Source: Arthrobacter sp. MYb229 (GTDB taxonomy: Bacteria > Actinomycetota > Actinomycetes > Actinomycetales > Micrococcaceae). From it: 64,000 bases of DNA. A program made the position numbers and the translations under genes. The notes beneath the pieces are model-generated. The model saw only the letters and a list, made by a program, of their open reading frames with translations. It made no database searches and was not told the origin of the DNA. Where the stretch lies: assembly GCF_002975405.1 (NCBI RefSeq), contig NZ_PCPS01000001.1:310001-374000 (forward strand), read 5' to 3'. Shown piece by piece: positions 2,960 through 44,106 of this stretch (position 1 is the stretch's first letter; each line of letters starts with the position of its first letter).

Positions 2960-4297
2960 GTGACTTTGCGTATCAGCGTCATCGGCACCGGCTATCTTGG
3001 TGCAACTCATGCAGCGTGCATGGCAGAACTGGGCTATGAGGTCATCGGCCTGGATGTTAATGCGGAGAAGCTCCAGGCACTGGCTGCCGGGATCCTTCCC
3101 TTCCACGAGCCGGGCCTGCCCGAGCTGCTGCGCAAGCATGTCTCCAGCGGGCGCCTGCGGTTCACCGACTCCTACGCGCAGGTGGCCGAACTGGCCGACA
3201 TCCACTTTGTCACCGTCGGCACCCCGCAGCGCGCGGATTCCCAGTCCGCGGATATGAGCTACGTCGATGCCGCCGTGGACTCCCTGGTGGAACACATCAG
3301 CGGCGAGGCGCTGATCGTGGGCAAATCCACGGTGCCCGTGGGCACCGCGCGCCGGCTGGCCGAACGCATCGAGGCCACCGCGGGCCCGGAAAGCCACATC
3401 ACCCTGGCCTGGAACCCCGAGTTCCTGCGCGAGGGCTTCGCCGTGAAGGACACGCTGACGCCGGACCGCTTGGTCTACGGCCTGGTGGACGAGAGCGCGC
3501 TGGGCAAGCTGCGCGAGGTCTACGCACCGATCCTCGCCGCCGGCACCCCCGAGGTCGTCACCGACCTGGAGACCTCGGAGCTGGTCAAGGTCGCGGCCAA
3601 CGCGTTCCTGGCCACCAAGATCTCCTTCATCAACGCCTTCGCCGAGGTCACCGAGAACGTGGGCGGGGACATCAAGACGCTGGCCGACGCGATCGGCCAC
3701 GATGCGCGCATCGGCCGCAAATTCCTCAACGCCGGCGTCGGGTTCGGCGGCGGCTGCCTGCCCAAGGACATCCGCGCCCTCCAGGCCCGGGTCAGCGAGC
3801 TGGGCCTGAGTCAGACCATGGGCTTCCTCGCCGAGGTGGACCAGATCAACCTGCGCCGCCGCGACCGCGTGGTGTCGCTGGCCTCCTCGATCCTGGGGGA
3901 GCAGCTGGCGGGCAAGCGGATCTGCGTGCTCGGGGTGACCTTCAAGCCCGACAGCGACGACGTGCGCGACTCGCCGGCGCTGGACATCGCGGTGCGGCTG
4001 TACAACTCCGGGGCCGAGGTTTCGGTCTACGACCCGGAGGGCAATAAGAACGCGGCCGGCCGTTTCCCGCGGCTGAACTACGTGGATTCCTGGCGCGAGG
4101 CGGCGAAGGCCGCGGACCTGGTGCTGCTGCTGACCGAATGGAATGAATTCCGGGCGCTGGACCCGCAAGAGCTCGGCGAAGTCGTTGGCACCCGCGCGCT
4201 GATCGACGGGCGCAATGTGCTGGACCGCCCGAAGTGGCGCGAGCAGGGCTGGGTCATCACCGGGCCCGGCGAGAAGTTCGAGCTCGACGAAAACTAG
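2960..4297 (+). CDS. UDP-glucose 6-dehydrogenase
   Basis: NAD-dependent UDP-glucose/GDP-mannose dehydrogenase family, which oxidises UDP-glucose to UDP-glucuronate for cell-surface polysaccharide. GTG 2960 has GGGGAG (2945-2950) upstream. The N-terminal Rossmann motif is GTGYLG (residues 9-14). The catalytic cysteine lies in FGGGCLPKD, near residue 265. The C-terminal UDP-binding domain carries GVTFKPDSDDVRDSPA. The 445 residues are typical. The Rossmann and Cys motifs identify the family, but substrate choice between UDP-Glc and other sugars is inferred. It stands alone between glmM and an A/T-rich stretch, with no polysaccharide cluster nearby. Confidence 0.9.
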   Translation: MTLRISVIGTGYLGATHAACMAELGYEVIGLDVNAEKLQALAAGILPFHEPGLPELLRKHVSSGRLRFTDSYAQVAELADIHFVTVGTPQRADSQSADMSYVDAAVDSLVEHISGEALIVGKSTVPVGTARRLAERIEATAGPESHITLAWNPEFLREGFAVKDTLTPDRLVYGLVDESALGKLREVYAPILAAGTPEVVTDLETSELVKVAANAFLATKISFINAFAEVTENVGGDIKTLADAIGHDARIGRKFLNAGVGFGGGCLPKDIRALQARVSELGLSQTMGFLAEVDQINLRRRDRVVSLASSILGEQLAGKRICVLGVTFKPDSDDVRDSPALDIAVRLYNSGAEVSVYDPEGNKNAAGRFPRLNYVDSWREAAKAADLVLLLTEWNEFRALDPQELGEVVGTRALIDGRNVLDRPKWREQGWVITGPGEKFELDEN

Positions 4298-4815
4298 CCC
4301 AGGGCAAGCCTTAGCTTCCCGAGCGTTCAGGAGAGCGAGAATAGTTCAATGTTGCCCGCTTTTTTGGTTTAACGCCCACGATCCCTGTACAAACAATTGC
4401 CGGAACCGTCGGCATTGAGCCTCTCGCTGGCGATCGGGCCAAACAAAGCGACGCTAGGAATCATCGGCGGTAAATTGAACCGACCAAGACTGCCGAGATT
4501 CTGATGTTAACGCGCAGCCGAACAAGGTATTCCAAATCGACTATACGGGAGGGCCCTAAAGCCTCGGGCCAAGTCCTTATCAGCATGATCAGCGTCGTCG
4601 CGTCCGACCCAGAATTGTACAAATAGGATGTCAAGCGCATCACCGTAGCAAAAGAGTGATCTTGCCTGGCAGCCCGATACACGGCTACGGATCCAGTGCT
4701 TGGCGCGCAACTACCTAAAATCACGCAACTTCAGACAATTGATTCGTTTCCTAAAATCATTGGATGCTGCATCAGAGAGTTGGTTTTCTGAACGTTTATT
4801 TTGGGATCGATACAG
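4298..4815. other. intergenic region without a convincing gene
   Basis: About 520 bp between the ugd-type gene and the minus-strand membrane protein. Base composition drops to visibly more A/T than ugd. Short open frames occur on both strands, for example minus 4461-4724. None has a good ribosome site or a recognisable sequence. Confidence 0.5.
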
Positions 4816-6177
4816 TCATTTGAAATCAGTGTATGAAACTATGATGAGCGCAAGTATGAGAAGTGCAAAGGCTATCCAATTAATACGTATCGTCCAGAGC
4901 GCCATTTTCATTCCGCGCTGTTTGACCTGACCGCGCTCATTAGCCTCGGCGATCTGAACTCGGGCGAGACCTCCCAGAATCAATCCGAGCGGTGGGAAAA
5001 CGCTCAGGAAAACGCTTGAAATGGCGAGACGGTTCAAGGGCGGCTTCGACTTTAGATTCGAACTGTTGGAGAGATTTTTCAACCTATTCAAGTTCTTTTC
5101 GATTCGGCGCACCAAAAGTTCCCGTAAGAATCCTCTTGACGAATTTCCGGTTCCTGATGATATTGATCGAAGTGCAAGAAAAACGGTCGATAAGAGCAGC
5201 ATAAAATACACTAGTAGTGTTTTTGAAGCATATCCCCATGGCTCGTACTGGCCGGAGAGTATCAACACGATCGAGACAATAGACGCGAGAAAGAGACTGG
5301 AGATCCCTACTGCCGCGATAATAAGTACGGTGAAGTCCATCCACGCCTTTACCACTGACAAGTGGAATAAATTCACGACTAGTGCGTAAACGCAAATAGC
5401 AATAGCTGATGACACCAGGAGTACCGCAAGAGTTATTCCGAGGTCTCCGCCTAATAGGAACATTTGGAGTAACGCCGTCATGAGAGGCGGAATGCAAACC
5501 AAGACTACGATTTGGTTCAAGCGTTCTCTTGGCTTCGACTCAGAGGTCCCAGCTTTCGCTGCCCGGCACCCTGCCTCAAGAAGCGTACTTCTTCGACGAC
5601 GCCAGGCTAACTGCAATTCGTTATCAGCCAACTCTGGATTCGAATAGGTGCCAGCGTCCGCTGCGAAAATGGCGATCAGGATCGCCGTCAATATGGGGCC
5701 GAAAAGTCGAACGAAGTCGACAGAAGCGAATGTATCGAGGTTCTGAAAAGCAAGATATATTCCGAAGAGCATCACGAACGGTATCAACAGACGAGCGAAA
5801 TCGACGAGAAATTGTTTTCGGGCAAGTTCACGAGCAATCGGTTGCAATCGGTTAGATACGGTCTTTACCATGACCTGTAGCGCAATCACGATTGTAGAAA
5901 GTATGCCGAAACCTGCCAACGCGATTCCCGCCGGTATAGGAACCAAGAGGACCTGAACGTCGTCTGTGCCGACGGTGCCGGGTAGGTTGCTGCCCCATTC
6001 GACGAATCTCAATATGAGGTAAATGAAGGCCGCAAAGCCGGAGCCTATTAAGAGCTGGGTGCGGATGCTGCTCCAGTAGCTTTCGTACTCTGAAACGGTC
6101 TGATCGGCTATTTCCTCTTGTGAAGGATTCTCGCCTTCGGGATCTTTCATTTTCCGACGGCTAAAACCCAGTAGCAA
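4816..6177 (-). CDS. polytopic membrane protein, DUF4190-like C-terminus
   Basis: A 453-residue protein of unknown function with about ten hydrophobic segments. It has a short charged, acidic N-terminus (residues 1-35), then transmembrane segments from about residue 43 onwards. Residues about 370-450 (LAISSVFLS, PLGLILGGLARVQI, then a last helix) resemble the two-helix DUF4190 domain. The TTG start at 6177 is supported by AGGAG five bases upstream on the minus strand. The gene and its flanks (4.3-6.4 kb) are richer in A/T than the surrounding housekeeping genes, and codon use looks less biased, which suggests acquisition by transfer. No partner gene is adjacent. Location in the membrane is confident; role is unknown. 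Confidence 0.7.
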   Translation of the reverse strand: MLLGFSRRKMKDPEGENPSQEEIADQTVSEYESYWSSIRTQLLIGSGFAAFIYLILRFVEWGSNLPGTVGTDDVQVLLVPIPAGIALAGFGILSTIVIALQVMVKTVSNRLQPIARELARKQFLVDFARLLIPFVMLFGIYLAFQNLDTFASVDFVRLFGPILTAILIAIFAADAGTYSNPELADNELQLAWRRRRSTLLEAGCRAAKAGTSESKPRERLNQIVVLVCIPPLMTALLQMFLLGGDLGITLAVLLVSSAIAICVYALVVNLFHLSVVKAWMDFTVLIIAAVGISSLFLASIVSIVLILSGQYEPWGYASKTLLVYFMLLLSTVFLALRSISSGTGNSSRGFLRELLVRRIEKNLNRLKNLSNSSNLKSKPPLNRLAISSVFLSVFPPLGLILGGLARVQIAEANERGQVKQRGMKMALWTIRINWIAFALLILALIIVSYTDFK

Positions 6178-6470
6178 CTTTTCTCCTATGCTAATTCGGT
6201 ACGTAAAGTCGAGTTTCCCTTATTTCCTGTGATTGCAATTGTCTCAAGATGTGTCCTTTCGGCAAGCTGATTCATAGCTAGAGGTGGACACAAACTCAAA
6301 TGACTTAAATGGACTGGCCTTCAAAGCGGAAAAGGTTGGTATTCAGCGTCGCCCATGTTTCGAAAAGACAATGTTTTGAAGGACTGTTTCGGATAGTCCT
6401 CTTTTGTTGAGTCGAGGAAAGACAAGGCAGTTGTTGACTGCCGGAGGAGATCATTGACTCGGTCGGTTTT

Positions 6471-7997
6471 TTAGAAGCCGAATTCCTTCATAACCGCCGG
6501 AAGATTTTCGATCAAGCGCGAGGCGCTCACGGTCCCTTGCTCGGCGCTTACCCGGCCCAGATGGCCATGGATGACCGCCGCGCAGGCGGTGAGTTCCATC
6601 AGGCGGCCATTGCTGACGGTCTCCAGGCCCTGGATGCCGGTCAGCGAGCTGTCGGAGAGCAGGTAGCCGAGAATGCCCGTGAGCACGTCTCCAGAGCCTG
6701 CAGTCGCCAGCTGGGCCGCCGCATGGCAAACCACGAGGTTGGCACCGTCCGGGGCGACCACATAGCTGGTCGGCCCCTTCAGTAGCACCACGGCGTTATA
6801 GGCAAGGGCCACCCAACGGGTCCAGCGGATCGGGTCCTGGGCGACTTCCTCGGTGGTGACGCTCACCCCGGCGCGGCGCAGCAGCATGCGAAGCTCCTTG
6901 GCATGCGGGGTCAGCACACGCGGCTGCTCGCTGGGACCGGCGGGGACCACATCCAGCCCGCTGGCATCGATGACCGCTGGCTGGCGGCTTTCGAACACAT
7001 TGGCGATAACCCCGGTAGGGGGAGTGCGGCTATCAATACCCGGGCCAATGGCCCAGGCCGAAATCTTCGCCCCGCGCCCGTGGAGGTGGCGGCGAGCCAA
7101 GGACAAAGCCTCGGAGATCTGCTGGTCATCCAGCGGAACGGTTTCCGGCGCGGCGATGGACAGCAGTGGCTGCACCTCTCCGGGTACGTGGGTGCGCAGC
7201 AGGCCCGTGCCGCAGGCCACGGCGGCCCGTGCGGTCAGCAGCGCGGCACCGGGGTAGAGCGCGGAGCCGGCAATGAGGCCGAGGACTCCGCGTTCGTACT
7301 TATGGCGCCCGGCGTCCCGCCAGCTGCGGTGCTCATCCAGGAGCGCGCGGGCCGAGGCTTCGTCCACCAATTCGGTTTCCGGGCTGAGCGCGGAAAAATC
7401 AAAGTCCAGGCTGGCAACCTGAATCTCACCGGTGACCAAGGGGGCGTCGCGGGAGATCAATCCGGTCTTCAGCGCCCCGAAGGTGATGGTGCGCTCGGCA
7501 AGCAGCACATGGTCATCGGCAACGCCGGTTTCGCAGTCCAGCCCGGAGGGAACATCGCAGGCCAGGACGCGTGCGCCGGCCGGCAGCTGAGGCAGCTGTG
7601 CTCCGGGGCGGTAGCCAATTCCATAGATCGCATCGATGACCAAGGCCGCCGCAGCCAGCTCGGACTGGCCCGCTGCCACCGGCTTCACGGTGCCGGAAGC
7701 AGCAGTATAGGCCTTCAAGGCTTCGGGGTGGCAGGTGTCGGTGCACTGCAGGGCGAGGATCCGGTAGCCGAGCTGGGCCAGTTCGGCCAAGGCGTAGAGC
7801 CCGTCACCGCCGTTGTTGCCCGGACCGATCAGCGCGACCACCAGGGTGTCGGTGCCCGATGGCGCTTGGGACAGCATGCTCTCGGCCGCGGCGGCGAGTT
7901 CACCGGCGGCGGCGCGCATCAGCGCTTCACTTCCACGTGTGGAGATCTCTTGGGCCTCGACCGCACGGACTTGCGCAACACTGTAGACAGGGATCAT
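6471..7997 (-). CDS. nnr: bifunctional NAD(P)HX epimerase/dehydratase
   Basis: Repairs hydrated NADH/NADPH. The N-terminal YjeF-type epimerase (about residues 1-210) carries GPGNNGGDGL. The C-terminal ADP-dependent dehydratase (about 225-505) carries GSGDVLTGILG near the end. The frame extends to GTG 8015, but a TAAAGT -10 box lies 7 nt before ATG 7997, so I place the start there (MIPVYSVAQVRAVE). The resulting 508 residues are normal for the fused form. acpS lies just upstream on the same strand, as in many actinobacteria. Confidence 0.92.
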   Translation of the reverse strand: MIPVYSVAQVRAVEAQEISTRGSEALMRAAAGELAAAAESMLSQAPSGTDTLVVALIGPGNNGGDGLYALAELAQLGYRILALQCTDTCHPEALKAYTAASGTVKPVAAGQSELAAAALVIDAIYGIGYRPGAQLPQLPAGARVLACDVPSGLDCETGVADDHVLLAERTITFGALKTGLISRDAPLVTGEIQVASLDFDFSALSPETELVDEASARALLDEHRSWRDAGRHKYERGVLGLIAGSALYPGAALLTARAAVACGTGLLRTHVPGEVQPLLSIAAPETVPLDDQQISEALSLARRHLHGRGAKISAWAIGPGIDSRTPPTGVIANVFESRQPAVIDASGLDVVPAGPSEQPRVLTPHAKELRMLLRRAGVSVTTEEVAQDPIRWTRWVALAYNAVVLLKGPTSYVVAPDGANLVVCHAAAQLATAGSGDVLTGILGYLLSDSSLTGIQGLETVSNGRLMELTACAAVIHGHLGRVSAEQGTVSASRLIENLPAVMKEFGF

Positions 7998-28329: not shown

Positions 28330-29918
28330 GTGCGAACAAAGACATGGTCCATGGCGGACCGTCCAGACGAAGCATCGTTGCCACCCTGACCTCGGCCACT
28401 GCATTGACGCTGACCGGACTAGGCACTGGGGCGGCCGTTGCGGCCCCTGAAAAACGGGGAAAAAATGACAAGAAGGCTTCTGCCGCGATGAGCTACCGTC
28501 CCAGTTATCACTTCAGCGTTCCGGATAATTGGAAAAATGACCCGCAGCGTCCGGTGTATCTGGACGGTGAATACCTGTACTACTACCTTTACAACGAGGA
28601 CTACATGCTCGGTGGCAGCGGTACAAGCTGGCGTTTGGCGACCACCAAGGACCACGTGAACTTCACCGACCACGGCGTAGCCATCAGCAAGCATGAAAGT
28701 CCTAATGGGGATTGCTGGTCCGGCTCGATTGTTATCGATGAAAAGAACACCGCGGGCTACGGGAAAGGCGCGTTGATTGCTCTGGTCACCCAGGCACCGG
28801 GCGGGGTGCAAGCCCAGTACCTCTGGTACTCCACCGATAAGGGACGCAGCTTCAAACCCGGTGGAACCAAGCCGGTGCTGGCCAACCCAGGCGTGGAAGC
28901 TTTCCGAGACCCGAAGATCATCTGGCATGAGCAAAGCTCACAGTGGGTCATGCTTAATGCCGAGGGGGACCGCATCGGGTTGTATACCTCGGTGAACCTG
29001 AAGCGGTGGAAAAGAACCAGCGAATTTGTGCGCACCACCTTGGGCACCCTCGAATGCCCGGACCTGTTTCAGATCCAGGCTTCTGACGGAACCAAACAAT
29101 GGGTGCTTGGCACCAGCGCCAATGGCAAGCCACATGATCTGCCCGCCACCTACGCATACTGGGTGGGCGACTTTGATGGAAAGGCCTTCACCACCAAGGA
29201 AGATGATCCGCAATGGCTTGACTGGGGCTTTGACTTCTATGGTGCGGTGACCTATCCGGATCATCGTGCCGACGGGAGTGAAAATCCCAAACTGCGCCGT
29301 GTCATTGGGTGGAACAACTTCTGGGATTACCCACACAATGCCCCAAGCATGGCCACAGATGGCTACAACGGTGATGACATGATTGTGCGCGAGGTGCGGA
29401 TGATCGCCGGTGCTGAAGGCTACTATCTCGCCTCGGTTCCGGTAAAGCAGTTGGATAAGCTGGCCGGTCCGGCGAAAAGCTTAGGCAGCCCGGCGGTATC
29501 CGGGGAGCAGGTATTGGATTTCTCGGGCAGCGCCTATGAGCTGGAATGCGAATTAAGCTGGGATCCGGCCAACCCGCCGGAGAACGTGGGATTTGAGCTG
29601 TGCCGGGCAAAAACCGGCACGCGTCACGTGGCCACCGGAATCTATCTGGCTGGAGGGTTCGCCTACGTGAACCGCAAGCCAAGTTTCCACCCCGGGGATA
29701 AGAGCGAAACCAAAAGCCCAATAGAGGCACCAAGCGGAAGACTCAAGGTGCGCATCCTAGTGGACCGCTCCAGCGTCGAAGTGTTCTTGGGGGACGGCAG
29801 GATCGTCCACTCACACCGGGTATTCCCGCTGGCTTCGGATTCCGGGATCAAATTGTTCGTTTCGGGCGGGACAGCAACGTACAAGAACCTCACCGTGCGC
29901 AAGCTGGCATTCGCTTAG
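28326..29918 (+). CDS. secreted GH32 fructan hydrolase, levanase/levan fructotransferase type
   Basis: A 530-residue GH32 enzyme with a twin-arginine signal (SRRSIVATLTS, cleavage near AVAAPE at about residue 40), so probably exported folded. The nucleophile motif is WKNDPQRPVYLDG, not the invertase-type WMNDPNG. FRDPK, ECPDLF (acid/base Glu), YAYWVGDFDG and QWLDWGFDFYGAV follow. This layout, with NDPQRP, resembles levan fructotransferases and levan biohydrolases of Arthrobacter relatives. Whether it releases difructose anhydride, levanbiose or fructose cannot be told from sequence. ATG 28326 overlaps the ABC ATPase stop by 4 bp. Confidence 0.85.
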   Translation: MSANKDMVHGGPSRRSIVATLTSATALTLTGLGTGAAVAAPEKRGKNDKKASAAMSYRPSYHFSVPDNWKNDPQRPVYLDGEYLYYYLYNEDYMLGGSGTSWRLATTKDHVNFTDHGVAISKHESPNGDCWSGSIVIDEKNTAGYGKGALIALVTQAPGGVQAQYLWYSTDKGRSFKPGGTKPVLANPGVEAFRDPKIIWHEQSSQWVMLNAEGDRIGLYTSVNLKRWKRTSEFVRTTLGTLECPDLFQIQASDGTKQWVLGTSANGKPHDLPATYAYWVGDFDGKAFTTKEDDPQWLDWGFDFYGAVTYPDHRADGSENPKLRRVIGWNNFWDYPHNAPSMATDGYNGDDMIVREVRMIAGAEGYYLASVPVKQLDKLAGPAKSLGSPAVSGEQVLDFSGSAYELECELSWDPANPPENVGFELCRAKTGTRHVATGIYLAGGFAYVNRKPSFHPGDKSETKSPIEAPSGRLKVRILVDRSSVEVFLGDGRIVHSHRVFPLASDSGIKLFVSGGTATYKNLTVRKLAFA

Positions 29919-35305: not shown

Positions 35306-36577
35306 GTGATCGTCAACTCATCTGAACAGCTCGTCCCGCCCGATGCCCCGCAAACTCGGAAATCCCCGTGGGTGGTCGGTGCCGTTGCCGTCGCCGCGGT
35401 AATCCTCGTCGGGTTGAACCTGCGCATGGGCATCGCCTCCGCCTCGCCGCTCTTCCACGAGCTGCAGGAGATGCTGGGCTATGGCACCTTTATCGCCTCG
35501 CTGCTGCCCACAATTCCGGTGCTCTGCTTCGCGGTGGCAGGTGCCGCGACCAGCATCGTGATTCGCCGGACCGGCCTTGAATTGGGCATTGCCCTTTCCT
35601 TGCTGCTGCTCACGGCTGGCTTGGCCCTTCGAGTCGTCGATTCGACTTGGGCGCTATTGGCAGGCACTGTGGTGGGCATGAGTGGTCTGGCAATCTGCAA
35701 CGTCGCCATGCCTTCCTTCATCCGCGAGCATCATGGACACCGTTCGGCGTCTATGACCGCTGCGTACACGACAACCATGTCAATTGGCGCCACCTTCGCC
35801 TCGGCGGTCAGCATCCCTCTGGCGATGCAAGTCGGATCGCCTACTACCGCCTTGGCTTTTTGGGCGATACCGGCCAGCTTGGCACTGCTGGCATTTGTGC
35901 CCTTGTCTTTCTCGGGAAACCGCACGAAGCCCACTGCGGGCGCGCATGTCTCACCTTGGCCGCTGCTGGCCACGGGCAAGGGGCTACTATTCACCACAGT
36001 CTTCGGAATCCAGTCGCTGCTGGTCTACACGGTGGTCAGCTGGTTGCCGCATATCCTCATTTCGCGCGGACTTGAACCGGCCGCCGCCGGGCTGATGCTC
36101 GGAATCGTGCAGGGAGTTAGCATCCCGGCGGTCCTGATCATGCTCTGGATGGCCTCGAAGCCGGGTTTGCTGCGCAGCGCTTTCTTGCTGACCACAAGCT
36201 GCTCGGTACTCGGCTTCTTGGCCCTGCTGGTTCTGCCCGTGGAATTGTCCTTGATCAGCTCGATACTCATCGGACTGGGATTCGGCGTCTTCCCGCTGGT
36301 TATGCTTATGCTCAGCCGCAGCGGTGGAAGCGCGGAGGAAACCACGGCCCTGTCCACGGTGGCTCAGTCGGTAGGCTACTTGGTTGCAGCCCTTGGCCCG
36401 TTCGTACTGGGTCTGATGCATGGCGCCTTGGGATCCTGGACCTTGGGCCTGGCGATAGTGCTGGCATTCGCGGTGGTTCAGCTGGTGTTCTGCTTTAAGC
36501 TCGGAGGCCTGCGCACCGAGGCAGAATCCCGGCAGTTGGTCGAAGTTGATGGTTCGGCCGAAGTAGAGCAATCATGA
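35306..36577 (+). CDS. MFS transporter, CynX/NimT family
   Basis: A 423-residue major facilitator with about 12 spans. The N-terminal helix contains GLNLRMGIASASPLFHELQ, the hallmark opening of CynX/NimT (cyanate/2-nitroimidazole) transporters. FIREHHGHRSASMTAAYTTTMSIGA, between helices 4 and 5, is also family-like. The start is GTG 35306, probably on a leaderless message. Its stop overlaps the GntR regulator by 4 bp, so the regulator probably controls this exporter or importer. The substrate is unknown. Confidence 0.83.
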   Translation: MIVNSSEQLVPPDAPQTRKSPWVVGAVAVAAVILVGLNLRMGIASASPLFHELQEMLGYGTFIASLLPTIPVLCFAVAGAATSIVIRRTGLELGIALSLLLLTAGLALRVVDSTWALLAGTVVGMSGLAICNVAMPSFIREHHGHRSASMTAAYTTTMSIGATFASAVSIPLAMQVGSPTTALAFWAIPASLALLAFVPLSFSGNRTKPTAGAHVSPWPLLATGKGLLFTTVFGIQSLLVYTVVSWLPHILISRGLEPAAAGLMLGIVQGVSIPAVLIMLWMASKPGLLRSAFLLTTSCSVLGFLALLVLPVELSLISSILIGLGFGVFPLVMLMLSRSGGSAEETTALSTVAQSVGYLVAALGPFVLGLMHGALGSWTLGLAIVLAFAVVQLVFCFKLGGLRTEAESRQLVEVDGSAEVEQS

Positions 36578-37248
36578 GCAATACACCCATGCGCCCACCG
36601 CTGGCCGATGAGGTCGTTGCCCGCTTGAGCGATGCCGTGGCTCAAGGACGCTGGGCAGTAGGGGATCGCATTCCGGCAGAACCCGAGCTGATCGCCGAAA
36701 TGCGTGTTTCGCGCGGAACGTTGCGCGAAGCAATTAAGGCTCTGGCTCGCACGGGCATGTTCGAAGTGCGCAGGGGAGACGGAACCTATGTGCGGGCCAC
36801 CAGCGAAATCAGCGGAACCGCGCAACGCGTCTACCGGGAACACTCGGACCAGGATGTGCTGCAGGTGCGTTTCGCTTTGGATACCCAGGCCGCGAGGCTC
36901 GCTGCGAAATCCTCCGATGCGCAGGTAATCCAGCGGTTGCGTACTTTGCTGCGTCAACGAAGTGACGCATGGCGGGCGCAGGACTATCAGGCTTGGTCGC
37001 AGGCAGACTGGCAGTTCCATCTTGAAGTTGCGCGCGCATCCGGAGTTCCGCTGCTGCATGAGATTTACGAGAGCTTTGGCAACGTCTTCCACGGTACCAA
37101 GATGACCCAGCGCCTAGCGGAGGGATTCGACGGTTGCCTGCGCGATGGGCATGAGTCACTGGTGGATGCCCTCGAAGCCGCCGACGACGAAGCGGCTGCC
37201 CGAACAGTTGTAGCCAACCTCGATTACTGCATGAGTTGGATGCCGTAA
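36574..37248 (+). CDS. GntR/FadR-family transcriptional regulator
   Basis: 224 residues. The N-terminal winged helix has GDRIPAEPELIAEMRVSRG, then TLREAIKALARTGMFEVRRGDGTYV (about residues 27-72). A C-terminal FCD all-helical ligand domain (about 90-220) carries the metal-binding His pattern (DWQFHLEVARA, DGHESLVDAL). It is translationally coupled to the MFS gene (ATGA). It probably senses the transported compound or a metabolite of it. Confidence 0.87.
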   Translation: MSNTPMRPPLADEVVARLSDAVAQGRWAVGDRIPAEPELIAEMRVSRGTLREAIKALARTGMFEVRRGDGTYVRATSEISGTAQRVYREHSDQDVLQVRFALDTQAARLAAKSSDAQVIQRLRTLLRQRSDAWRAQDYQAWSQADWQFHLEVARASGVPLLHEIYESFGNVFHGTKMTQRLAEGFDGCLRDGHESLVDALEAADDEAAARTVVANLDYCMSWMP

Positions 37249-37591: not shown

Positions 37592-39547
37592 TTATATACG
37601 CAGACCTTCCGCTTCCGGCCAGTCCTCTGGAACTAAGGCTGGCGGCTTAGACCAAGTAGGTTCGACCAATGCCTCCTGGAACCAATCTTCTTGGAGGTTT
37701 GCATGCTCTGTGATGATTAGCTGGAAACCTGGGTTCTCCTCGCGTACGTATTCGAGAAACAAATTGAACAGGCGCCGCACAGCAACCATATCCGCGTCGG
37801 CTTCAGTTCGCTCGACTGTACCGTCTGCTTCCTTATATTTCTCTTCGGTGGGGAAATATACTTGCGTTGGCTGATCGATTAGCAAGAAAGATGGGATGGG
37901 ACACCCATTTTTTGAAGAGTAAAGATGGATTGCCAAGAGTGCTGCCACGTGATAAGCCAAGTGGTTTTCGCCGCCACCGCTCAATGCCATCGGTACCGGA
38001 CGTCCCGGTCGATCAATGACGACCGTAAGTTTTCTAAGATCAAAACGACTCGGTGTGCCGGCAAACTCTGCTTCTAATGCATCAATATATCTAGAAACAT
38101 CTTTCGAAATGTTATTTAATACCGATGCGATTGCCTCCTCTCGGTCATCGTCGCCAACTTCCAGCTTGAGCTTTTCCACTTTGCCCTTCAGCTGATAAAT
38201 TTCATTCTCTGCATCCGAGACTTCCCTGTCAGGTGCTAACGATTCCAAGAAGAGACTTACTCGTCCTACAACTCGGGCCGACGCGACGGCCCTGTCACGC
38301 AAGTTTTCTAGCCGTTCGTCAGCCTCGATGAGAGCGACTAGTTTGGCCTCTAGATTCTGAATAGCTTCAGTTGTTATTCTTGACTCTTGCTCCAAAACAG
38401 CAATAAAGTCATCAATTTTTGGCCTTTCCCCTGTTACAGCTTCGAGTTCTTGATCAAGGGACGCGAGCTCCGATAGAAGAGCCGAAGCTACGGGTACATC
38501 CAACCCCAAATTCTCCTCTGCAAATGGCCATTGCCATTCACCTGTACTCCGTTTCTTCGGGAAAGCCAAGATTGACGAGAGCCTGTCACGTTGTTCTATG
38601 GCTTCATCTACAAAGCCTCCAGCTTGAGCAGAGTACCTCCTAGTGGAATCCAATTTGAACTGGATTTCTCGCCGACCTTGCCTTAGCTTTTGGATCTGAG
38701 CCTCCAATTCGGTAATTTCATGAGTCTCACCAAATGACTGCTGTGAATCAAGTGGCGCCCAGAATTCAATAGCACGAAGTTTTTCAATAAAGTCATCATC
38801 TGATGTCGCAGGAGCCAGGAGTCCCACAGCAACTGCTTCGGAGTGCAATTTGAATGCGGAAATCTGCGCACCCGCTATAGCACCTTCCAAGGAATCAAGC
38901 TTTTTCTGTGCCAAACTCAAATCACGCTTCGCCGCACGTAACTTCGATTGATAGGTAAATCGATCCGGGGAGTCTATGCCGAGCAGAACGGGGAACGTGT
39001 CTTGAATGCTCAGTGGAATGTACGGCTCGTTTTGACGGTAGAACAGCTGGTCCTTATTGGCGATTAAACCTTGTTTTTGGAAAAGATAGAACAAAGTGTG
39101 GTTGATTTGCGCTGCATAACTGACCCTGCTTTGATCCATAGGAACGAGAGTTCTGTTCTCGGGGATACCCAACAGCTTGGAAAGTATCACTCTTACTGCA
39201 GTATCATCAGTATTCGCTTCGAGTCCTTCAAATGGAGGGATTGCGATGTTTGTTCCCCTGCGTATCATCGCTGCACTAGCGCTCTGTGCGCCATTGCTAG
39301 GGGCCTGCTTGGCGACCAGAACTTCCTCGCCTTCGAATCGGTAGATTACCGCAAACCAAGAAACCTTATCTCGAATCACGCCCTCTGGGACTTTGAATTC
39401 AGAGACGCCCATACAATACTCGATGATTTCCGAAAGGGCGGACTTACCTGTCGAAGATCGACCCGTGATCACGTTTAGACCCTCTTTAAATGAAAGGTCC
39501 CGCCGCCGATGGTCATGGCTGTAAATATGGATGGACTTAATTCTCAT
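37592..39547 (-). CDS. ABC-3C system ATPase (DUF3732-type, SMC/Rad50-like)
   Basis: A 651-residue ABC ATPase of the SMC/Rad50-like class. ATG 39547 overlaps the stop of the preceding gene (ATGA); the frame upstream of it is not family-like. Walker A is GRSSTGKS (residues 29-36). The middle (about 230-490) is largely helical, Glu/Lys/Leu-rich and probably coiled coil. The C-terminal lobe has a signature-like ALSGGGENH and a Walker B, FLLIDQPTQVYFP, with Gln after the Asp where most ABC proteins have Glu. It is the last gene of a three-gene operon. The ABC-3C class is described as conflict systems; function here is inferred. Confidence 0.83.
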   Translation of the reverse strand: MRIKSIHIYSHDHRRRDLSFKEGLNVITGRSSTGKSALSEIIEYCMGVSEFKVPEGVIRDKVSWFAVIYRFEGEEVLVAKQAPSNGAQSASAAMIRRGTNIAIPPFEGLEANTDDTAVRVILSKLLGIPENRTLVPMDQSRVSYAAQINHTLFYLFQKQGLIANKDQLFYRQNEPYIPLSIQDTFPVLLGIDSPDRFTYQSKLRAAKRDLSLAQKKLDSLEGAIAGAQISAFKLHSEAVAVGLLAPATSDDDFIEKLRAIEFWAPLDSQQSFGETHEITELEAQIQKLRQGRREIQFKLDSTRRYSAQAGGFVDEAIEQRDRLSSILAFPKKRSTGEWQWPFAEENLGLDVPVASALLSELASLDQELEAVTGERPKIDDFIAVLEQESRITTEAIQNLEAKLVALIEADERLENLRDRAVASARVVGRVSLFLESLAPDREVSDAENEIYQLKGKVEKLKLEVGDDDREEAIASVLNNISKDVSRYIDALEAEFAGTPSRFDLRKLTVVIDRPGRPVPMALSGGGENHLAYHVAALLAIHLYSSKNGCPIPSFLLIDQPTQVYFPTEEKYKEADGTVERTEADADMVAVRRLFNLFLEYVREENPGFQLIITEHANLQEDWFQEALVEPTWSKPPALVPEDWPEAEGLRI

Positions 39548-40032
39548 GGTCGCACTCCTAGGGTGGTGTAAATGGTGGCTCGATCTCCGATGCGAGCGAA
39601 CTCTTTTCCGAGTCGAATCGCGTTCTTCTGGCATTCTTGTGATTCTTGAGTGCCATCTACGGCAGCTCGAATTCTCTTTGGGACAGCATGAATTCGCCCC
39701 TCACGGGAAACTTCTATGCAGTGATTACGCGCCAGAATACTGAAAGCTTCGTGGGTAAACGTGAGTATATCTCGGGCTCTTTCATCAAAACCCAGTATCA
39801 GGTCTGGATGTTTTTCAAAGATTGTTAAGAGTCGCGTTTTTGGATGTGCAGTCAGTTTTTTTCGAGTATGGCTGTGCAAACTAAGTGGTAATATGAGAAG
39901 TGACAATGAGAAAGGCATGCCGCGCGGGTCTACTTCTTGATAACTCTTAATTGCTCGTTGCAGCAAAAGCCCGCAAAATGCTGGATTGAACAAGTTTCGA
40001 ACTTCAATTGGCCGCTGTGTCCAAGGTTGCAT
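39544..40032 (-). CDS. ABC-3C system middle component
   Basis: A 162-residue soluble protein between the effector-type and ATPase genes, in the position of ABC-3C middle components. The N-terminus, VRNLFNPAFCGLLLQRAIKSY, followed by FSLSLLILPLSLH, is characteristic of this small group. Middle components are thought to link the ATPase to the effector subunit. ATG 40032 has TAGGA just upstream, and the stop overlaps the ATPase start by 4 bp. The assignment rests mainly on size, order and these short motifs. Confidence 0.72.
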   Translation of the reverse strand: MQPWTQRPIEVRNLFNPAFCGLLLQRAIKSYQEVDPRGMPFSLSLLILPLSLHSHTRKKLTAHPKTRLLTIFEKHPDLILGFDERARDILTFTHEAFSILARNHCIEVSREGRIHAVPKRIRAAVDGTQESQECQKNAIRLGKEFARIGDRATIYTTLGVRP

Positions 40033-40037
40033 GATTC

Positions 40038-41252
40038 CTACCCCAGTACTTCATCAAGTCGGCTGAGAAACGTCGGGTGCCAATAAACTCTCGGTTGCGG
40101 TTTTTCATTGGCAAGAATATGGAAGCCGCCCCTCACAACGTATGGCTCTGTGACCTTTTCCCGTATCCGGAGAGAGTCGAGATTTCCACTTTCCAAATCT
40201 GCCCACCTGTAGAGTTGTTTGCCTGCTTCCGCTAGCTTTTCGTTAGCTATCGTGACATCAAAATCCTCAAATACAACGTCACGATAACGACTCCATTCAT
40301 CTACAAGTTTGGCTTCAAATCTGCCTATTTCTCCGGGCATTAGGACATTTTCTCGAGCCCAAACCGAGCGTTGAGCGTACGCGCGATAATAGTCAAGAAT
40401 GGCATTTCGAATTCTTCCAGTTTGGACTCCGATTTCACGGAGCTGTATGACGAACTGGCGTTGGTCACCTTCAGCATCAATTTCATATTCTGGAGTTGCT
40501 CCGAAGAAATGGATCGGGAGATTGTTTGTTTTATACTCGTCTGCAATACCAGATAGCTTGTCTGAAAGCTCGTATCCGGAGAGTGGAGCAGCGCGTTCAC
40601 CAGTAAGAAGCAAGATCATTTCCTGGCTCCACCATCCCAGTAGACGATCAAAAATTGCGGGGCGAAATTCTCTGGAGATGCTTCGCATATGTCGGTTGAT
40701 GATTTTTTCCGCGATGTCAGATATACGTGGTGTCGAGTCGATTATGGTGACGCGGGCGAAAAAATCTTCACGCTGTGCGTCCGTCAGGCTATCGAGCTCA
40801 GAACGAACCTCCTTAGATAATGCGGTATTTGAACGCTCCAGTGCCTCCCTGGCGCACATAACCGCATCAGCTATGTTCTCGCCCAAATTAGTCAGCCTTG
40901 AACTAAATTTATGGAGATAGGACGTGGGTGAAATCTCAGACGTCGTAAATAACAGGAATTTTAAGTCAGATTCTTGGAACGAATCTCGCTTGTAGCGAGA
41001 GATCCAAATGCGTACTGATTTCCAAAAATCGACTGATAAGTCGGTTAGTCGGTCTCCGACGCTCTTATGCTTCAACGAGCCAAGTGATTTTGCGCCGTTG
41101 AGATCAACAAAATCGAGATCATCATCCATTTCGATGTACACCTCCGTTGATTCAGCTAGCTCAAACAGCCGGAGCAGAGCAAATTGAGGTTGGTACATGT
41201 ACCCAAGCCCTTGTTCGCTCGCGGAGTATTTGTCTTTTGGTAGCGTATTCAC
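40038..41252 (-). CDS. ABC-3C effector: nuclease-like N-terminus plus CTD
   Basis: 404 residues, first gene of the operon (GTG 41252 with AAGGA upstream). Residues 15-65 (YMYQPQFALLRLFELAE, then EMDDDLDFVD, then SLKHKS) resemble the restriction-endonuclease-fold dsDNA nuclease domain fused to ABC-3C C-terminal domains. The family's Q-V-K-H is SLKH here (Lys61). Next comes LTDLSVDFWKSVRIWI, also typical. The C-terminal half, with GRIRNAILDYYRAYAQRSVWARENVL and YVVRGGFHILANEKPQPRVYWHPTF, is the ABC-3C CTD signature. A DNA-cleaving role gated by the ATPase is inferred from family. Confidence 0.8.
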   Translation of the reverse strand: MNTLPKDKYSASEQGLGYMYQPQFALLRLFELAESTEVYIEMDDDLDFVDLNGAKSLGSLKHKSVGDRLTDLSVDFWKSVRIWISRYKRDSFQESDLKFLLFTTSEISPTSYLHKFSSRLTNLGENIADAVMCAREALERSNTALSKEVRSELDSLTDAQREDFFARVTIIDSTPRISDIAEKIINRHMRSISREFRPAIFDRLLGWWSQEMILLLTGERAAPLSGYELSDKLSGIADEYKTNNLPIHFFGATPEYEIDAEGDQRQFVIQLREIGVQTGRIRNAILDYYRAYAQRSVWARENVLMPGEIGRFEAKLVDEWSRYRDVVFEDFDVTIANEKLAEAGKQLYRWADLESGNLDSLRIREKVTEPYVVRGGFHILANEKPQPRVYWHPTFLSRLDEVLG

Positions 41253-41672
41253 GCGAGAGTCCTTTCTCGAACTGGAAACCTCGATTGGGGGAATATCCCT
41301 GATCGTTGCATTCGCATCCGATTTCCTCGTAGGTCGAGCCTTAGATTCATTACAATCAATTAGTCAGAGCCTACCGAGAATATTAATCTTTTCAGACTTC
41401 TGTTTCGGCGGTGTGCCTTTTCAACATAGCCTTTCCTTGCGTGAATACCGTGGTCTCCTACATGTACATGTTCTGCACCACAACTGCAGCAAGGTGCCAA
41501 GGCACTGAAGTCACCAGAATTTCGTCGTGACGGCTCGATATTTTGACCCAGTGGTTTCACGGCGTACGCGTATTTAGTATTCAATAATAGCAAAAAGGAG
41601 ATCTGGAGTTGGGAAGGAAATAGGAGCGTTCAAGATCTATGATTCATGAATCAAAGGTCACCATTTCGATGA

Positions 41673-42089
41673 TCAAATATTACTGGCCTCTCGCGGCCTC
41701 CACTCGTTGAACTTGCCGCCCAATATCTGACCGTCTATGTCAGGCTGGGAGCGCTGACAGACCAGTTGGATGCTCTGCATTTCCGTGCGTTGTTTGAAGA
41801 TCGATTCACCCAGTTCCTCCCACCATCTGCGACACTCCGCTCCGGTGGTCCACGTCACCGGAGAAATCCTTGTCGCCTTTACGCACACCTGGAAAAAGGC
41901 GCGAGTTGTGTGAGCGAAAGAATCGAATTCCTCAATCAATCCCTAGTTGCGCTGCCTGAGGATCACTTTGACGAAGATGTGTCTATTGTCTTTGAGATGA
42001 TCATGGTCCGCACCAACATAACTGGTGTCTCTCGTGAAATCCCGAACGACCTCAATAGCTTAGGAAACCAGTTCAGCACGCCACTTTCC
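41673..42089 (-). pseudogene. decayed protein-coding remnant, family unknown
   Basis: One minus-strand frame reads coding-like sequence across two internal stops (TAA at 42062-42060 and TAG at 41945-41943). Pieces are AIEVVRDFTRDTSYVGADHD, HIFVKVILRQRN, then IEEFDSFAHTTRAFFQVCVK and TWTTGAECRRWWEELG. Composition and the lack of further stops over about 135 codons suggest a real former gene. I do not recognise the family. Confidence 0.4.
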
Positions 42090-42113
42090 CTACCAAAGCT
42101 GAGAGAGTCGGAA

Positions 42114-42146
42114 GGGAAGGGAAGGGAAGGGAAGGGATGGGAAGGG
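42114..42146 (+). repeat. GGGAA pentanucleotide repeat with seven GGG runs
   Basis: GGG runs at 42114, 42119, 42124, 42129, 42134, 42139 and 42144 are each separated by two bases (AA, once AT). The tract satisfies the G-quadruplex pattern on the plus strand and could also vary in length by slippage. Confidence 0.85.
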
Positions 42147-42681
42147 AATCAAGTCAAAGCCTTTTCGACCAACGCGGCTACCTTTGATAGTGCGGAGTTG
42201 AACCGTCGGCATCGAGCTCACAGCGAATGCGAATACCGGAACAAGTAATTGAAACATTCCTACTAGAGCAATCTTGCTCAAAGGGCGTTGGCCGTGAACC
42301 GACCATGGCCCCATTCGGCTCCCCTGGCAGTGAGCTACCTGTCAAAGGTTCAGTTAGCGATCATCCGATCACACGTAGGGCCGGGGTGTGGGATCCTGAG
42401 GAGGAGGATTCGGCTATTCATTCTAGTTGGGAAACCAAACATGAGTGGACGGCAAACTAAGCACCTGATCCCGTGCATCATGGAATAGAGGCTTGGCTCC
42501 CCACCTTTATCATCAATATCTGCGAGAGTTTGCGACTGTTCCGGAGACACGAGCTACTTTCAGACTGTACCTGTCGTTTGCCCCTGCCCGTCAACGGATT
42601 GAAAGCTATGAAGGACATAGTCGTGACCCTCATAGGCTGGCGAACTCAATCCCTCGTCAGATTACCAGAAACGAGTAAAGA

Positions 42682-42714
42682 CCGCTGAGATTAACAAGAA
42701 TCCTAGATCAGCGG
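42682..42714 (+). terminator. hairpin in gene-poor stretch
   Basis: CCGCTGA (42682-42688) pairs with TCAGCGG (42708-42714), followed by CTTTCGGTCT. It lies just after the end of a plus-strand coding-like fragment and may be its old terminator. Confidence 0.4.
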
Positions 42715-42772
42715 CTTTCGGTCTCACATTGAAACAATCGGGCTAGGCATTGGGATATTCTTGCACTGCAGT

Positions 42773-42820
42773 GAGTTGAAGGTTAGTAGTAGTAGAGAGT
42801 TGAAGGTTAGTAGTAGTAGA
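42773..42820 (+). repeat. perfect 24-bp tandem duplication
   Basis: Two identical adjacent units, 42773-42796 and 42797-42820. Each begins GAGTTGAAGG and ends in an AGT trinucleotide run (TTAGTAGTAGTAGA). Confidence 0.95.
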
Positions 42821-42897
42821 TTTCTCGAACAAGCTCCGTCGAATGCTGTCATGGGTGTGCAGCCGGTCGCTCATATTGGGTGAAGACAAATACAGGT

Positions 42898-42929
42898 CAG
42901 TTAGATTCTGACAATTCAGAATCTAACTG
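42898..42929. terminator. 14-bp inverted repeat, possible terminator of the ligase gene
   Basis: CAGTTAGATTCTGA (42898-42911), loop CAAT, TCAGAATCTAACTG (42916-42929). It is 34 bp past the end of the minus-strand ligase gene. The stem is A/T-rich with no clear T-run, so either a terminator or a protein-binding palindrome is possible. Confidence 0.55.
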
Positions 42930-42963
42930 AGCTATTGTCTGTCTCTTTTACTGCTTGGTTGCT

Positions 42964-44106
42964 CTAAACAGCTTTCATCCGCGCCACATTCTCATGCACC
43001 ACAGCCTTGAAATCGCCACCGGACGCCGCGAAGGTAATGCGCTGCAACTGATACTCGGCGCCGCGTTCAATCAGCCGGATAATGCCCTGCAGTTCATTGG
43101 AACAACCAAGCTGCTCGGCCACCGGTGCCAGACGCTTCACTTCGGCGCGCAGGTGGTCGGTCACGAGCATTTCATCGCCCTGAGCGTTGAGGATGATGAT
43201 GGCATCCAGCCCGTAACGAGCGGCTCGCCATTTGTTCTCCACACGGAACCAGGCCGGCATGACCGGAACCTTATACCCGGCCTCGATGGCCAGGGACATA
43301 TCGTGCACCAGGCACTGGGTCAGCGCGGTTATAGCGGCAATGTCATCTAGGGAGCTCAGTCCGTCGCAGATTCGCATCTCCACGGTGCCGAAGCGAGGTA
43401 CCGGGCGGACGTCCCAGCGGATTTCCGAAACGTCATCGATCACGCCGGTGTGCAGCATGTCCGCCACATGGGATTCGTATTCGGACCAGGAATTAAAATG
43501 GAAAGGGATTCCGGCGGCTGGCAGCTGCTGGAACATCAGCGAACGTTGCGAAGCGTACCCGGTGTCCTCGCCGCCCCAATAGGGGCTGGAGGCGCTGAGC
43601 GCCTGGAAATGCGGCTGGTAGTTGATCAGCCCGTCGGTGATCGGCAGGGCCTTGTCGCGGCTGTCCAGACCGACGTGTACGTGCACCCCGTAGATCACCA
43701 TCTGGCGTCCCCACCACTGGGTGCGGTCAATCAGCTTGGCGTAGCGATCCTTGTCGGTGACCGGCTGTGAGATCGGCGCGGCGAAGGGGTGGGAACCGGC
43801 GGAATACAAATCCACCCCGTGCTTCGCAGCCACCTCATTGAGCATGCGCACATTGGTGCGTAGCTCTTCCGCCGCATCTGCGACGGTGTTGTGCACCCCG
43901 GTGACCACCTCAACGGTGTTCATCAGCAGTTCGGGCTTCACCGTGGGGTGTTCATCCTCGTGACCCAGTCCGGCATCTTCCTTGAGCTGATCGAGGATTT
44001 TTTCGGCGACCGAGCACAAGTCCGCGCTTTCGCGATTGACCAAGGCGATTTCCCATTCAACACCAATGGTGGATTGAGATGAGTTGGCGAACTCGATTTT
44101 CTGCAC
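42964..44106 (-). CDS. carboxylate-amine ligase, YbdK/GCS2 family
   Basis: A 380-residue glutamate-cysteine-ligase-2-type enzyme. The N-terminal STIGVEWEIALV holds the metal-binding Glu. HPTVKPELLMNTVEVVTG and YGVHVHVGLDSRD follow, and VPRFGTVEMRICDG with PAWFRVENKWRAARYG lie in the C-terminal half. Family members have weak glutamate-cysteine ligase activity, and the true substrate in actinobacteria is not settled. GTG 44106 has GAGGAG upstream on the minus strand. It follows the methyltransferase gene on the same strand after 157 bp. Confidence 0.87.
   Translation of the reverse strand: MQKIEFANSSQSTIGVEWEIALVNRESADLCSVAEKILDQLKEDAGLGHEDEHPTVKPELLMNTVEVVTGVHNTVADAAEELRTNVRMLNEVAAKHGVDLYSAGSHPFAAPISQPVTDKDRYAKLIDRTQWWGRQMVIYGVHVHVGLDSRDKALPITDGLINYQPHFQALSASSPYWGGEDTGYASQRSLMFQQLPAAGIPFHFNSWSEYESHVADMLHTGVIDDVSEIRWDVRPVPRFGTVEMRICDGLSSLDDIAAITALTQCLVHDMSLAIEAGYKVPVMPAWFRVENKWRAARYGLDAIIILNAQGDEMLVTDHLRAEVKRLAPVAEQLGCSNELQGIIRLIERGAEYQLQRITFAASGGDFKAVVHENVARMKAV

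What the first reader, a model, noticed from the sequence alone, without database searches (positions are those of the whole stretch)
37592..41252. Three-gene ABC-3C conflict/defence operon in an A/T-rich segment
Tightly packed minus-strand genes (5-bp gap, then an ATGA overlap) encode a nuclease-like/CTD protein, a small middle component and a Rad50-like ATPase. This is the ABC three-component arrangement predicted from comparative genomics to act in biological conflict. The segment is poorer in G/C than both flanks and is followed by 1.7 kb of debris and repeats, as in a defence hotspot. Few such systems have been tested experimentally.
Basis: partly seen in the sequence, partly recalled or inferred. 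Interest (0 to 1): 0.75.

Follow-up and report, generated by a model that had tools for sequence, protein, structure and literature searches.

The report
A three-gene Lamassu phage-defence operon
This is a complete three-gene Lamassu-type immune operon, a DNA sensor plus a linker plus a DNA-cutting effector, sitting at a spot where some related bacteria keep other defence genes; the kind is known, but the cutter's active site has an unusual arrangement shared by a whole sub-group.

Summary
Window 37592-41252 holds LmuA-LmuC-LmuB on the minus strand (5-base gap, then an ATGA overlap). All three match family models: CTD7, MC3, DUF3732 and PADLOC LmuA, LmuC, LmuB. 'ABC-3C' is a name for type II Lamassu, already tested elsewhere and with solved structures, so 'few tested' is out of date. 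LmuB is in 1 of 18 genus genomes, this one. Two relatives have the flanking genes 33 bp apart, and three others carry different defence-type genes at that site: a defence hotspot. Relatives are a Cryobacterium operon and many proteobacterial, plasmid and viral-contig copies. Less ordinary: in 90 of 90 LmuA rows of this clade the Q of the Cap4-type QxK motif is Ser, with an Asp 14 residues after the Lys, resembling the permuted site of CCGG-family restriction enzymes; and LmuB has a conserved WQWPF stretch where Salmonella LmuB has CPMCG. I read it as an active type II Lamassu: membership near certain, the permuted site plausible and untested.

The parts
40038..41252 (-). lmuA: effector, 404 aa, GTG start; Cap4-like PD-(D/E)XK nuclease domain (E41, D44, D45, S59-x-K61, D75) plus C-terminal CTD7 (267-398)
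   Evidence: Pfam CTD7 3.5e-38; PADLOC LmuA 5.4e-62; PDB LmuA 9nxx 8.4e-7 over 9-399; Foldseek first hits LmuA 9nxx, 9hr5, later Cap4; an AGAAAGGA ribosome-binding-like stretch upstream, read by eye
39544..40032 (-). lmuC: middle component MC3, 162 aa; starts 5 bases after the lmuA stop
   Evidence: Pfam MC3 4.9e-50 over 4-162; PADLOC LmuC 4.4e-15; weak profile match to solved LmuC chains, E 0.0079-0.025
37592..39547 (-). lmuB: SMC/Rad50-like ATPase with DUF3732, 651 aa; start overlaps the lmuC stop (ATGA); Walker A GRSSTGKS, SGGG signature, Walker B IDQP (E to Q), WQWPF at 338-342, no CxxC
   Evidence: Pfam DUF3732 3.2e-47; PADLOC LmuB 1.9e-127; PDB 9hqu 4.9e-48 over 18-643; motif counts; overlap; the only DUF3732 match in its own genome
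37249..42963 (.). 5.7-kb variable segment between the convergent GntR and GCS2 genes; absent (33 bp, both stop codons included) in relatives G008 and G011
41253..42963 (.). remnant without recognised genes upstream of lmuA; 42819-43000 (its end plus 37 bases of GCS2) is 71% identical to sister species G001; holds a terminator-like hairpin (42897-42930)
36574..37248 (+). left boundary gene: GntR/FCD regulator (not part of the system)
   Evidence: Pfam GntR 1.6e-17, FCD 8.4e-22
42964..44106 (-). right boundary gene: YbdK/GCS2 glutamate-cysteine ligase, conserved in the genus (not part of the system)
   Evidence: Pfam GCS2 1e-65; 18 of 18 genus genomes

Best explanation
The operon is a complete type II Lamassu (ABC-3C, DdmABC-like) defence system at a variable chromosomal site. 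SHOWN by sequence: sensor ATPase LmuB, linker LmuC, nuclease-type effector LmuA, in the order and packing seen in relatives, sporadic in the genus. INFERRED from the Vibrio and Salmonella systems: LmuB with LmuC holds LmuA inactive until it meets abnormal DNA, such as hairpins or ends, in phage or plasmid DNA; LmuA is then released, forms a tetramer and cuts double-stranded DNA, stopping the infection usually at the cost of the cell. The E-to-Q Walker B suggests slow or no ATP turnover, so activation may be a one-way switch. PROPOSED for this sub-group: LmuA cuts with a permuted PD-(D/E)XK site, D44/D45 + S59-x-K61 + D75, the acid on the following helix replacing the lost Q of QxK. The confidence given is for identity and defence role; the permuted site is scored in the section on the most novel reading.
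For: Three family matches each in Pfam and PADLOC. Sequence and fold match to solved Lamassu chains, ahead of Cap4. A-C-B on one strand with at most 60 bases between matches in 77 of 85 related loci; of the 8 others, 3 are cut by a contig end, 4 have all three genes with a gap or partial match, and 1 (L142) shows no LmuB despite 5 kb of room. Q559 of IDQP in 77 of 81 relatives, the other 4 gapped there. Sporadic in the genus, 1 of 18, with empty sites and other defence-type cargo. Of 5 plasmid copies opened, 4 lie beside mobility or transfer genes and the fifth beside helicase and restriction-endonuclease genes. K61 aligns with the Lys replaced by Ala in deposited chains 9ny1 and 9hqx (sequences compared by eye). 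Mechanism of known systems: passages of PMC10586767, PMC12409362 and PMC12904381.
Against: No activity was tested. S59 departs from QxK, so catalysis is inferred. The LmuA model has mean pLDDT 61: blocks 21-240 are mostly 72-89, but 61-70 (just after K61) is 45 and 121-130 is 64, and the C-terminal part is mostly at or below 50; no coordinates were available to measure D75 to the metal site. LmuC matches solved LmuC only weakly. The structural papers were not held, so the tetramer-release step is known to me only through a review's proof note. Promoter-like sites are no more than shuffles give (8 against 6.7, sd 2.3), so expression is unknown. Relatives' loss rather than gain here was not excluded on a species tree.
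Confidence: 0.85

Rival explanations
1. A Lamassu whose LmuA lost DNA cleavage when Q became S, and now acts by binding or blocking DNA, or only nicks.
For: Ser replaces the motif's Q in 90 of 90 clade rows, while of 17 other LmuA rows 16 have Q and one has E; both solved LmuA have Q.
Against: E41, D44, D45 and K61 are invariant in the same 90 rows and H62 in the 85 related loci; a dead site would hardly keep them. D75 is invariant too. Active CCGG-family restriction enzymes have the acid and the Lys interchanged in the motif (PMC6344858 passages).
Confidence: 0.12
2. A Rad50-like DNA repair or housekeeping operon, not defence.
For: LmuB has a Rad50/SMC-type head (AAA_23 1.6e-6; Rad50 model 3.7e-6 but far below its cut-off).
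Against: LmuB absent from 17 of 17 other genus genomes; CTD7 in only 5 of 396 phylum genomes, own included; no nuclease of Mre11 type among the three genes; plasmid, integrase and prophage-like contexts.
Confidence: 0.02
3. A decayed island remnant, no longer expressed.
For: 1.7 kb upstream without recognised genes; no clear promoter.
Against: All three genes are full length with intact motifs and translational coupling.
Confidence: 0.06

Closest known systems
Type II Lamassu / DdmABC of Vibrio cholerae (PDB 9nxx, 9ny5, 9uxh, 9uxl)
   Same: Gene set LmuA-LmuC-LmuB, DUF3732 ATPase, LmuA with C-terminal ABC-3C part and Cap4-like nuclease, Walker B DQP
   Different: Low identity for LmuA (Foldseek 18%); QDK in Vibrio against SLK here
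Salmonella enterica Lamassu LmuACB (PDB 9hqu, 9hqx, 9hr5)
   Same: Same architecture; best PDB match for LmuB, 4.9e-48
   Different: QSK motif with Ser at the column of D75; CPMCG, a zinc-hook type motif, aligned with WPFAE of the window's EWQWPFAE
LmuACB on a Raoultella conjugative plasmid (NZ_AP025010; near-same matches in Klebsiella and E. coli plasmids) and a Cryobacterium locus (L065)
   Same: 57% identity for LmuA and LmuB to the plasmid copy; LmuA 60% to Cryobacterium; same S-x-K...D
   Different: Plasmid copy has integrase and insertion sequences around it; the Cryobacterium locus has an integrase gene upstream
CCGG-family restriction enzymes (Cfr10I, NgoMIV)
   Same: Permuted PD...K...D/E arrangement (passages of PMC6344858); migration of the carboxylate described for NgoMIV (passages of PMC1189080)
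   Different: Analogy of active-site layout only; no sequence relation was tested or claimed

Membership tests
Lamassu type II / ABC-3C | SMC/Rad50-like LmuB with DUF3732, Walker A and B | tested here: met
   Pfam DUF3732 3.2e-47, PADLOC LmuB 1.9e-127, PDB 9hqu 4.9e-48; motifs
Lamassu type II / ABC-3C | Small middle component between effector and ATPase | tested here: met
   MC3 4.9e-50; PADLOC LmuC 4.4e-15
Lamassu type II / ABC-3C | LmuA with an effector domain and a recognised ABC-3C C-terminal domain | tested here: met
   CTD7 3.5e-38; PADLOC LmuA 5.4e-62; Foldseek LmuA first
Lamassu type II / ABC-3C | Walker B Glu replaced by Gln in LmuB (general, per PMC10586767 passage) | tested here: met
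   IDQP in the window; Q in 77 of 81 relatives, 4 gapped
Lamassu type II / ABC-3C | Zinc hook CPxCG in LmuB (many but not all members, so not required) | tested here: not met
   No CxxC in the window protein; 2 of 82 rows have one anywhere; 'many (but not all)'
Lamassu type II / ABC-3C | Anti-phage or anti-plasmid activity | not testable with these tools
   Needs a phage and plasmid challenge
Cap4-type nuclease effector | D...QxK active-site motif | tested here: not met
   D44/D45 and K61 present, Q is S59
Cap4-type nuclease effector | Cap4-like nuclease fold | tested here: met
   Foldseek hits to LmuA and then Cap4 6wam and 6vm5, E 2.1e-4 and 4.0e-4, on a model of modest confidence; element order H15-31 E37-41 E45-50 E53-59 H72-89 E98-102
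CBASS Cap4 | C-terminal SAVED domain | tested here: not met
   The C-terminus is CTD7, the only Pfam match of LmuA up to E 1

The most novel reading that the evidence does not exclude
This operon belongs to a sub-group of type II Lamassu, not described in what I could search, spread over contigs labelled with eight phyla, over plasmids and over prophage-like contigs. Its LmuA uses a permuted nuclease site (D44/D45, S59-x-K61, acid D75 on the next helix) instead of QxK, and its LmuB dimerises through a conserved hook-less WQWPF apex in place of the zinc hook.
Probability: 0.4. Interest if true: 0.5.

Novelty: new member of a known kind. Interest (0 to 1): 0.35.

Why it matters
It adds an intact actinobacterial type II Lamassu from a genus in which the other 17 sampled species lack LmuB, and it marks the GCS2 3' end as a defence hotspot that can be mined. 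If the permuted site is real, it gives a natural comparison for which metal ligands a Lamassu nuclease needs, and the hook-less stretch bears on how LmuB dimers form and sense DNA.

Tried and rejected
Rejected: a Rad50 repair operon (LmuB absent in 17 of 17 relatives); a gene cargo in the upstream remnant (four of its open frames scanned in PHROGs, one weak match, E 0.0076; no plasmid DNA match; single copy in its own genome); a simple recent gift from proteobacterial plasmids (the tree pairs the window with Cryobacterium at SH-aLRT 82, below the starred level, near the base of the sub-group); an origin in annotated phages (LmuB: 1 record, 48% covered; LmuC: none; LmuA was not searched there).

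Led nowhere: Rfam on the whole window (none); the only tRNA call in the window is doubtful; NCBIfam gave no match up to E 0.1 for LmuA or LmuC. In one search the LmuB query was mis-framed, so its count of 47 of 85 is invalid and replaced. One search stopped by script error after printing LmuA residue counts; from it I use H62 and D75 in the 85 loci. One search failed and was redone.

Rows and caveats for the active-site count. 107 rows = window, 5 plasmid copies, 80 genome contigs, 6 class genomes, 15 CTD7-search hits. Left out: the two partial matches of G317 (L058, L059); L147 (the window itself); L150-L156, which are re-fetches of genomes already in the set. Of 48 plasmid records with LmuA only 5 regions were opened, so the Streptomyces, Pseudomonas and most Rhizobium plasmid copies are not in the count. 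Five of the 107 rows are duplicates; the tree was a quick one that warned of long branches meeting, also at the base of the Ser clade, and the trait columns were not taken out of it. The Ser rows are one clade, so one event, not 90. One of the two peptide patterns used to fetch the 80 contigs contains D75, and so does one used for viral contigs. Of the 80 rows, 18 lack that pattern and still have D75, and so do the 10 Ser rows not found by patterns: window, 5 plasmid copies, 4 CTD7-search hits. D75 is also Asp in 11 of 17 non-Ser rows, so it is not unique to the sub-group; other acids kept in the sub-group but rare outside it (E34, D47) could serve instead.
Full report
WHAT IS THERE. Between a GntR regulator (36574-37248, +) and a GCS2/YbdK ligase (44106-42964, -) lies a 5.7-kb segment with three minus-strand genes: lmuA 41252-40038, lmuC 40032-39544 and lmuB 39547-37592. 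The gap is 5 bases, then an ATGA overlap. The 680-aa ORF listed for LmuB begins 87 bases upstream; relatives' proteins align from ATG 39547, giving 651 aa. G+C is 0.46-0.51 in the operon against 0.56-0.62 at 35.0-37.2 kb and 0.55-0.68 at 43-50 kb; another dip to 0.51 lies at 31.5-34 kb, so composition alone proves little.

IDENTITY. Pfam: DUF3732 (3.2e-47), MC3 (4.9e-50), CTD7 (3.5e-38). PADLOC: LmuB 1.9e-127, LmuC 4.4e-15, LmuA 5.4e-62. By sequence, LmuB matches solved Salmonella and Vibrio DUF3732 chains (4.9e-48 and 2.5e-44), and LmuA matches their LmuA chains over nearly its whole length (Vibrio 8.4e-7, Salmonella 1.9e-5). A model of LmuA (29 sequences; mean pLDDT 61; blocks 21-240 mostly 72-89 except 61-70 at 45 and 121-130 at 64; the rest mostly at or below 50) finds LmuA structures first and Cap4 later. 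ABC-3C, Lamassu type II and DdmABC are names within one superfamily (passages of PMC10586767 and PMC12409362).

HOTSPOT. Among 18 genomes of the genus (own included), LmuB is in 1, this one, while GCS2 is in 18. I fetched the GCS2 surroundings of all 17 others. In the fetched stretches GntR is whole near GCS2 in 6 and a fragment in 1; in 10 it is not in the stretch. In G008 and G011 the two genes are 33 bp apart, stop codons included; in G002 the GntR fragment is 27 bp away. G001, the nearest by identity (flanking proteins 93-96%), has other cargo of 4.7 kb there: a DUF6308 protein, UzuA (2e-91) and a 687-aa protein without a match. G006 has a GmrSD_N-type and an EcsC protein, and G013 a GmrSD protein, directly next to GCS2. 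So recognised defence-type genes lie at this spot in 3 of 17 relatives. I listed ORFs in 9 of the 17 and ran Pfam and PADLOC on 7 cargo proteins from 4 genomes (G014's 202-aa protein had no match) and PADLOC on one more each from G015 and G012, so 3 is a lower bound. G012's 13.8 kb looks metabolic by eye and was not searched further. Insertion in this genome rather than loss elsewhere is the simpler reading; it was not tested on a species tree. Window 42819-43000 is 71% identical to G001 over 186 columns, 37 bases of it GCS2, and a terminator-like hairpin stands beside GCS2 in both.

RELATIVES. Plasmids: LmuB in 92 records, 42 of them covered to 80% or more; LmuA in 48; best 57% identity, in Raoultella, Klebsiella and E. 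coli. The five regions that I opened all have LmuA, LmuC and LmuB together: integrase and insertion sequences around one, one inside a conjugation gene region, one before a recombinase gene, one before IS66 genes, and one (LmuC annotated in two pieces) beside helicase and restriction-endonuclease genes. Genome contigs: 173 stretches matched a pattern, 136 encode a relative, the best 80 were kept; nearest is Cryobacterium at 60%, with an integrase-family gene upstream. Of the 79 tree rows with a phylum label, 66 are Pseudomonadota; eight phyla occur, by record title, many of them metagenome bins. Viral contigs: 9 loci; in L176 LmuA follows a phage-type repressor gene, with a replication initiator and an Erf-like gene near, and in L170 it follows an integrase gene. 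A-C-B is contiguous in 77 of 85 loci (5 plasmid, 80 contig). In the class, LmuA is matched in 8 of 394 genomes, own included; in the phylum CTD7 is in 5 of 396; in the phylum of L071 (Variovorax) in 11 of 398.

ACTIVE SITE. In LmuA the Cap4-type D...QxK reads D44 D45...S59-L60-K61. Over 107 rows, 90 have Ser and 17 have Q (16) or E (1). E41, D45 and K61 are invariant in all 107; D44 in 106. The Ser rows are one side of a branch at SH-aLRT 99, with a long-branch warning. Both solved LmuA have Q, and the Lys aligned to K61 is the one replaced by Ala in entries 9ny1 and 9hqx (compared by eye). D75, at the start of the next helix (72-89), is Asp in 90 of 90 Ser rows and 11 of 17 others (A 3, E 2, R 1); Vibrio has Asp there, Salmonella Ser. 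Seven of nine viral loci also show S...K...D; the other two (L174, L175) lack the nuclease part in the open frame. CCGG-family restriction enzymes use a PD...K...D/E permutation (passages of PMC6344858), and migration of the carboxylate, also to the helix after the strand, is described (PMC1189080 passages). I recall, from no call, that Cfr10I has S-x-K with the Glu 14 residues after the Lys, the same spacing as K61 to D75. This is analogy plus conservation, not proof; the fetching bias and dropped rows are told in Tried and rejected.

LmuB. Walker A GRSSTGKS is kept in 78-79 of 79 aligned rows, and IDQP keeps Q in 77 of 77 aligned (4 of 81 gapped). The Q is reported as general in LmuB and suggests slow hydrolysis (PMC10586767 passages). 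There is no CxxC in the window protein and in only 2 of 82 rows overall. W338, W340, P341 and F342 are kept in 78 of 78 aligned rows, Q339 in 77 of 78; in the profile alignment WPFAE of this stretch lies over CPMCG of Salmonella LmuB, while Vibrio LmuB has neither.

MECHANISM. Reviews say that Lamassu is thought to respond to hairpin-forming palindromes or DNA ends, and that freed LmuA forms a tetramer that activates the Cap4 nuclease (PMC12904381 passages; PMC12409362 addendum). I transfer this by homology. The primary papers were not held.

LITERATURE LIMIT. In the held library 5 papers hold Lamassu, LmuA and LmuB together, of which I opened one. A search for at least 3 of Lamassu, LmuA, active site, QxK, catalytic found 29 papers and listed 8; none of the 8, by title or start of abstract, describes an S-x-K LmuA. 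That is no proof of absence, since the structural papers are outside the library. A survey of Actinobacteria reports Lamassu there, mainly placed on Streptomyces chromosomes (passages of PMC10482375).

VERDICT. Interest is modest, raised by the sub-group's altered nuclease site and hook-less ATPase stretch.

Noticed in passing
L033 (G001) 4204-7117: Nearest species has UzuA (GIY-YIG) beside a 687-aa protein with no Pfam match at E 0.01 and no PADLOC match at E 1, at the same site: possible two-gene defence unit.
   Followed up: partly
L033 15874-16494 and L038 644-1306: Partial extra copies of the GCS2 gene about 13 and 17 kb from the full gene in G001 and G012, next to DNA matching window 33.9-35.1 kb: suggests duplication around this site.
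   Followed up: no
L174, L175 (viral contigs): The LmuA open frame lacks the N-terminal nuclease part (matches only residues 82-404).
   Followed up: partly
L091 5001-6212: LmuA of a Polynucleobacter locus has an internal stop, and LmuB matched only from residue 276: probably a decayed copy.
   Followed up: no
L176 5310-9555: A 37%-identical S-x-K type LmuA follows directly after a phage-type repressor gene in a prophage-like contig; L177 and L178 look alike in LmuA, but their neighbours were not scanned.
   Followed up: partly
window 28996-29086: ARAGORN reports an undetermined tRNA with a four-base anticodon; probably spurious.
   Followed up: no
window 42897-42930: 15-pair hairpin between the remnant and GCS2; similar hairpins stand beside GCS2 in G001, G012 and G013 (read by eye).
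   Followed up: partly
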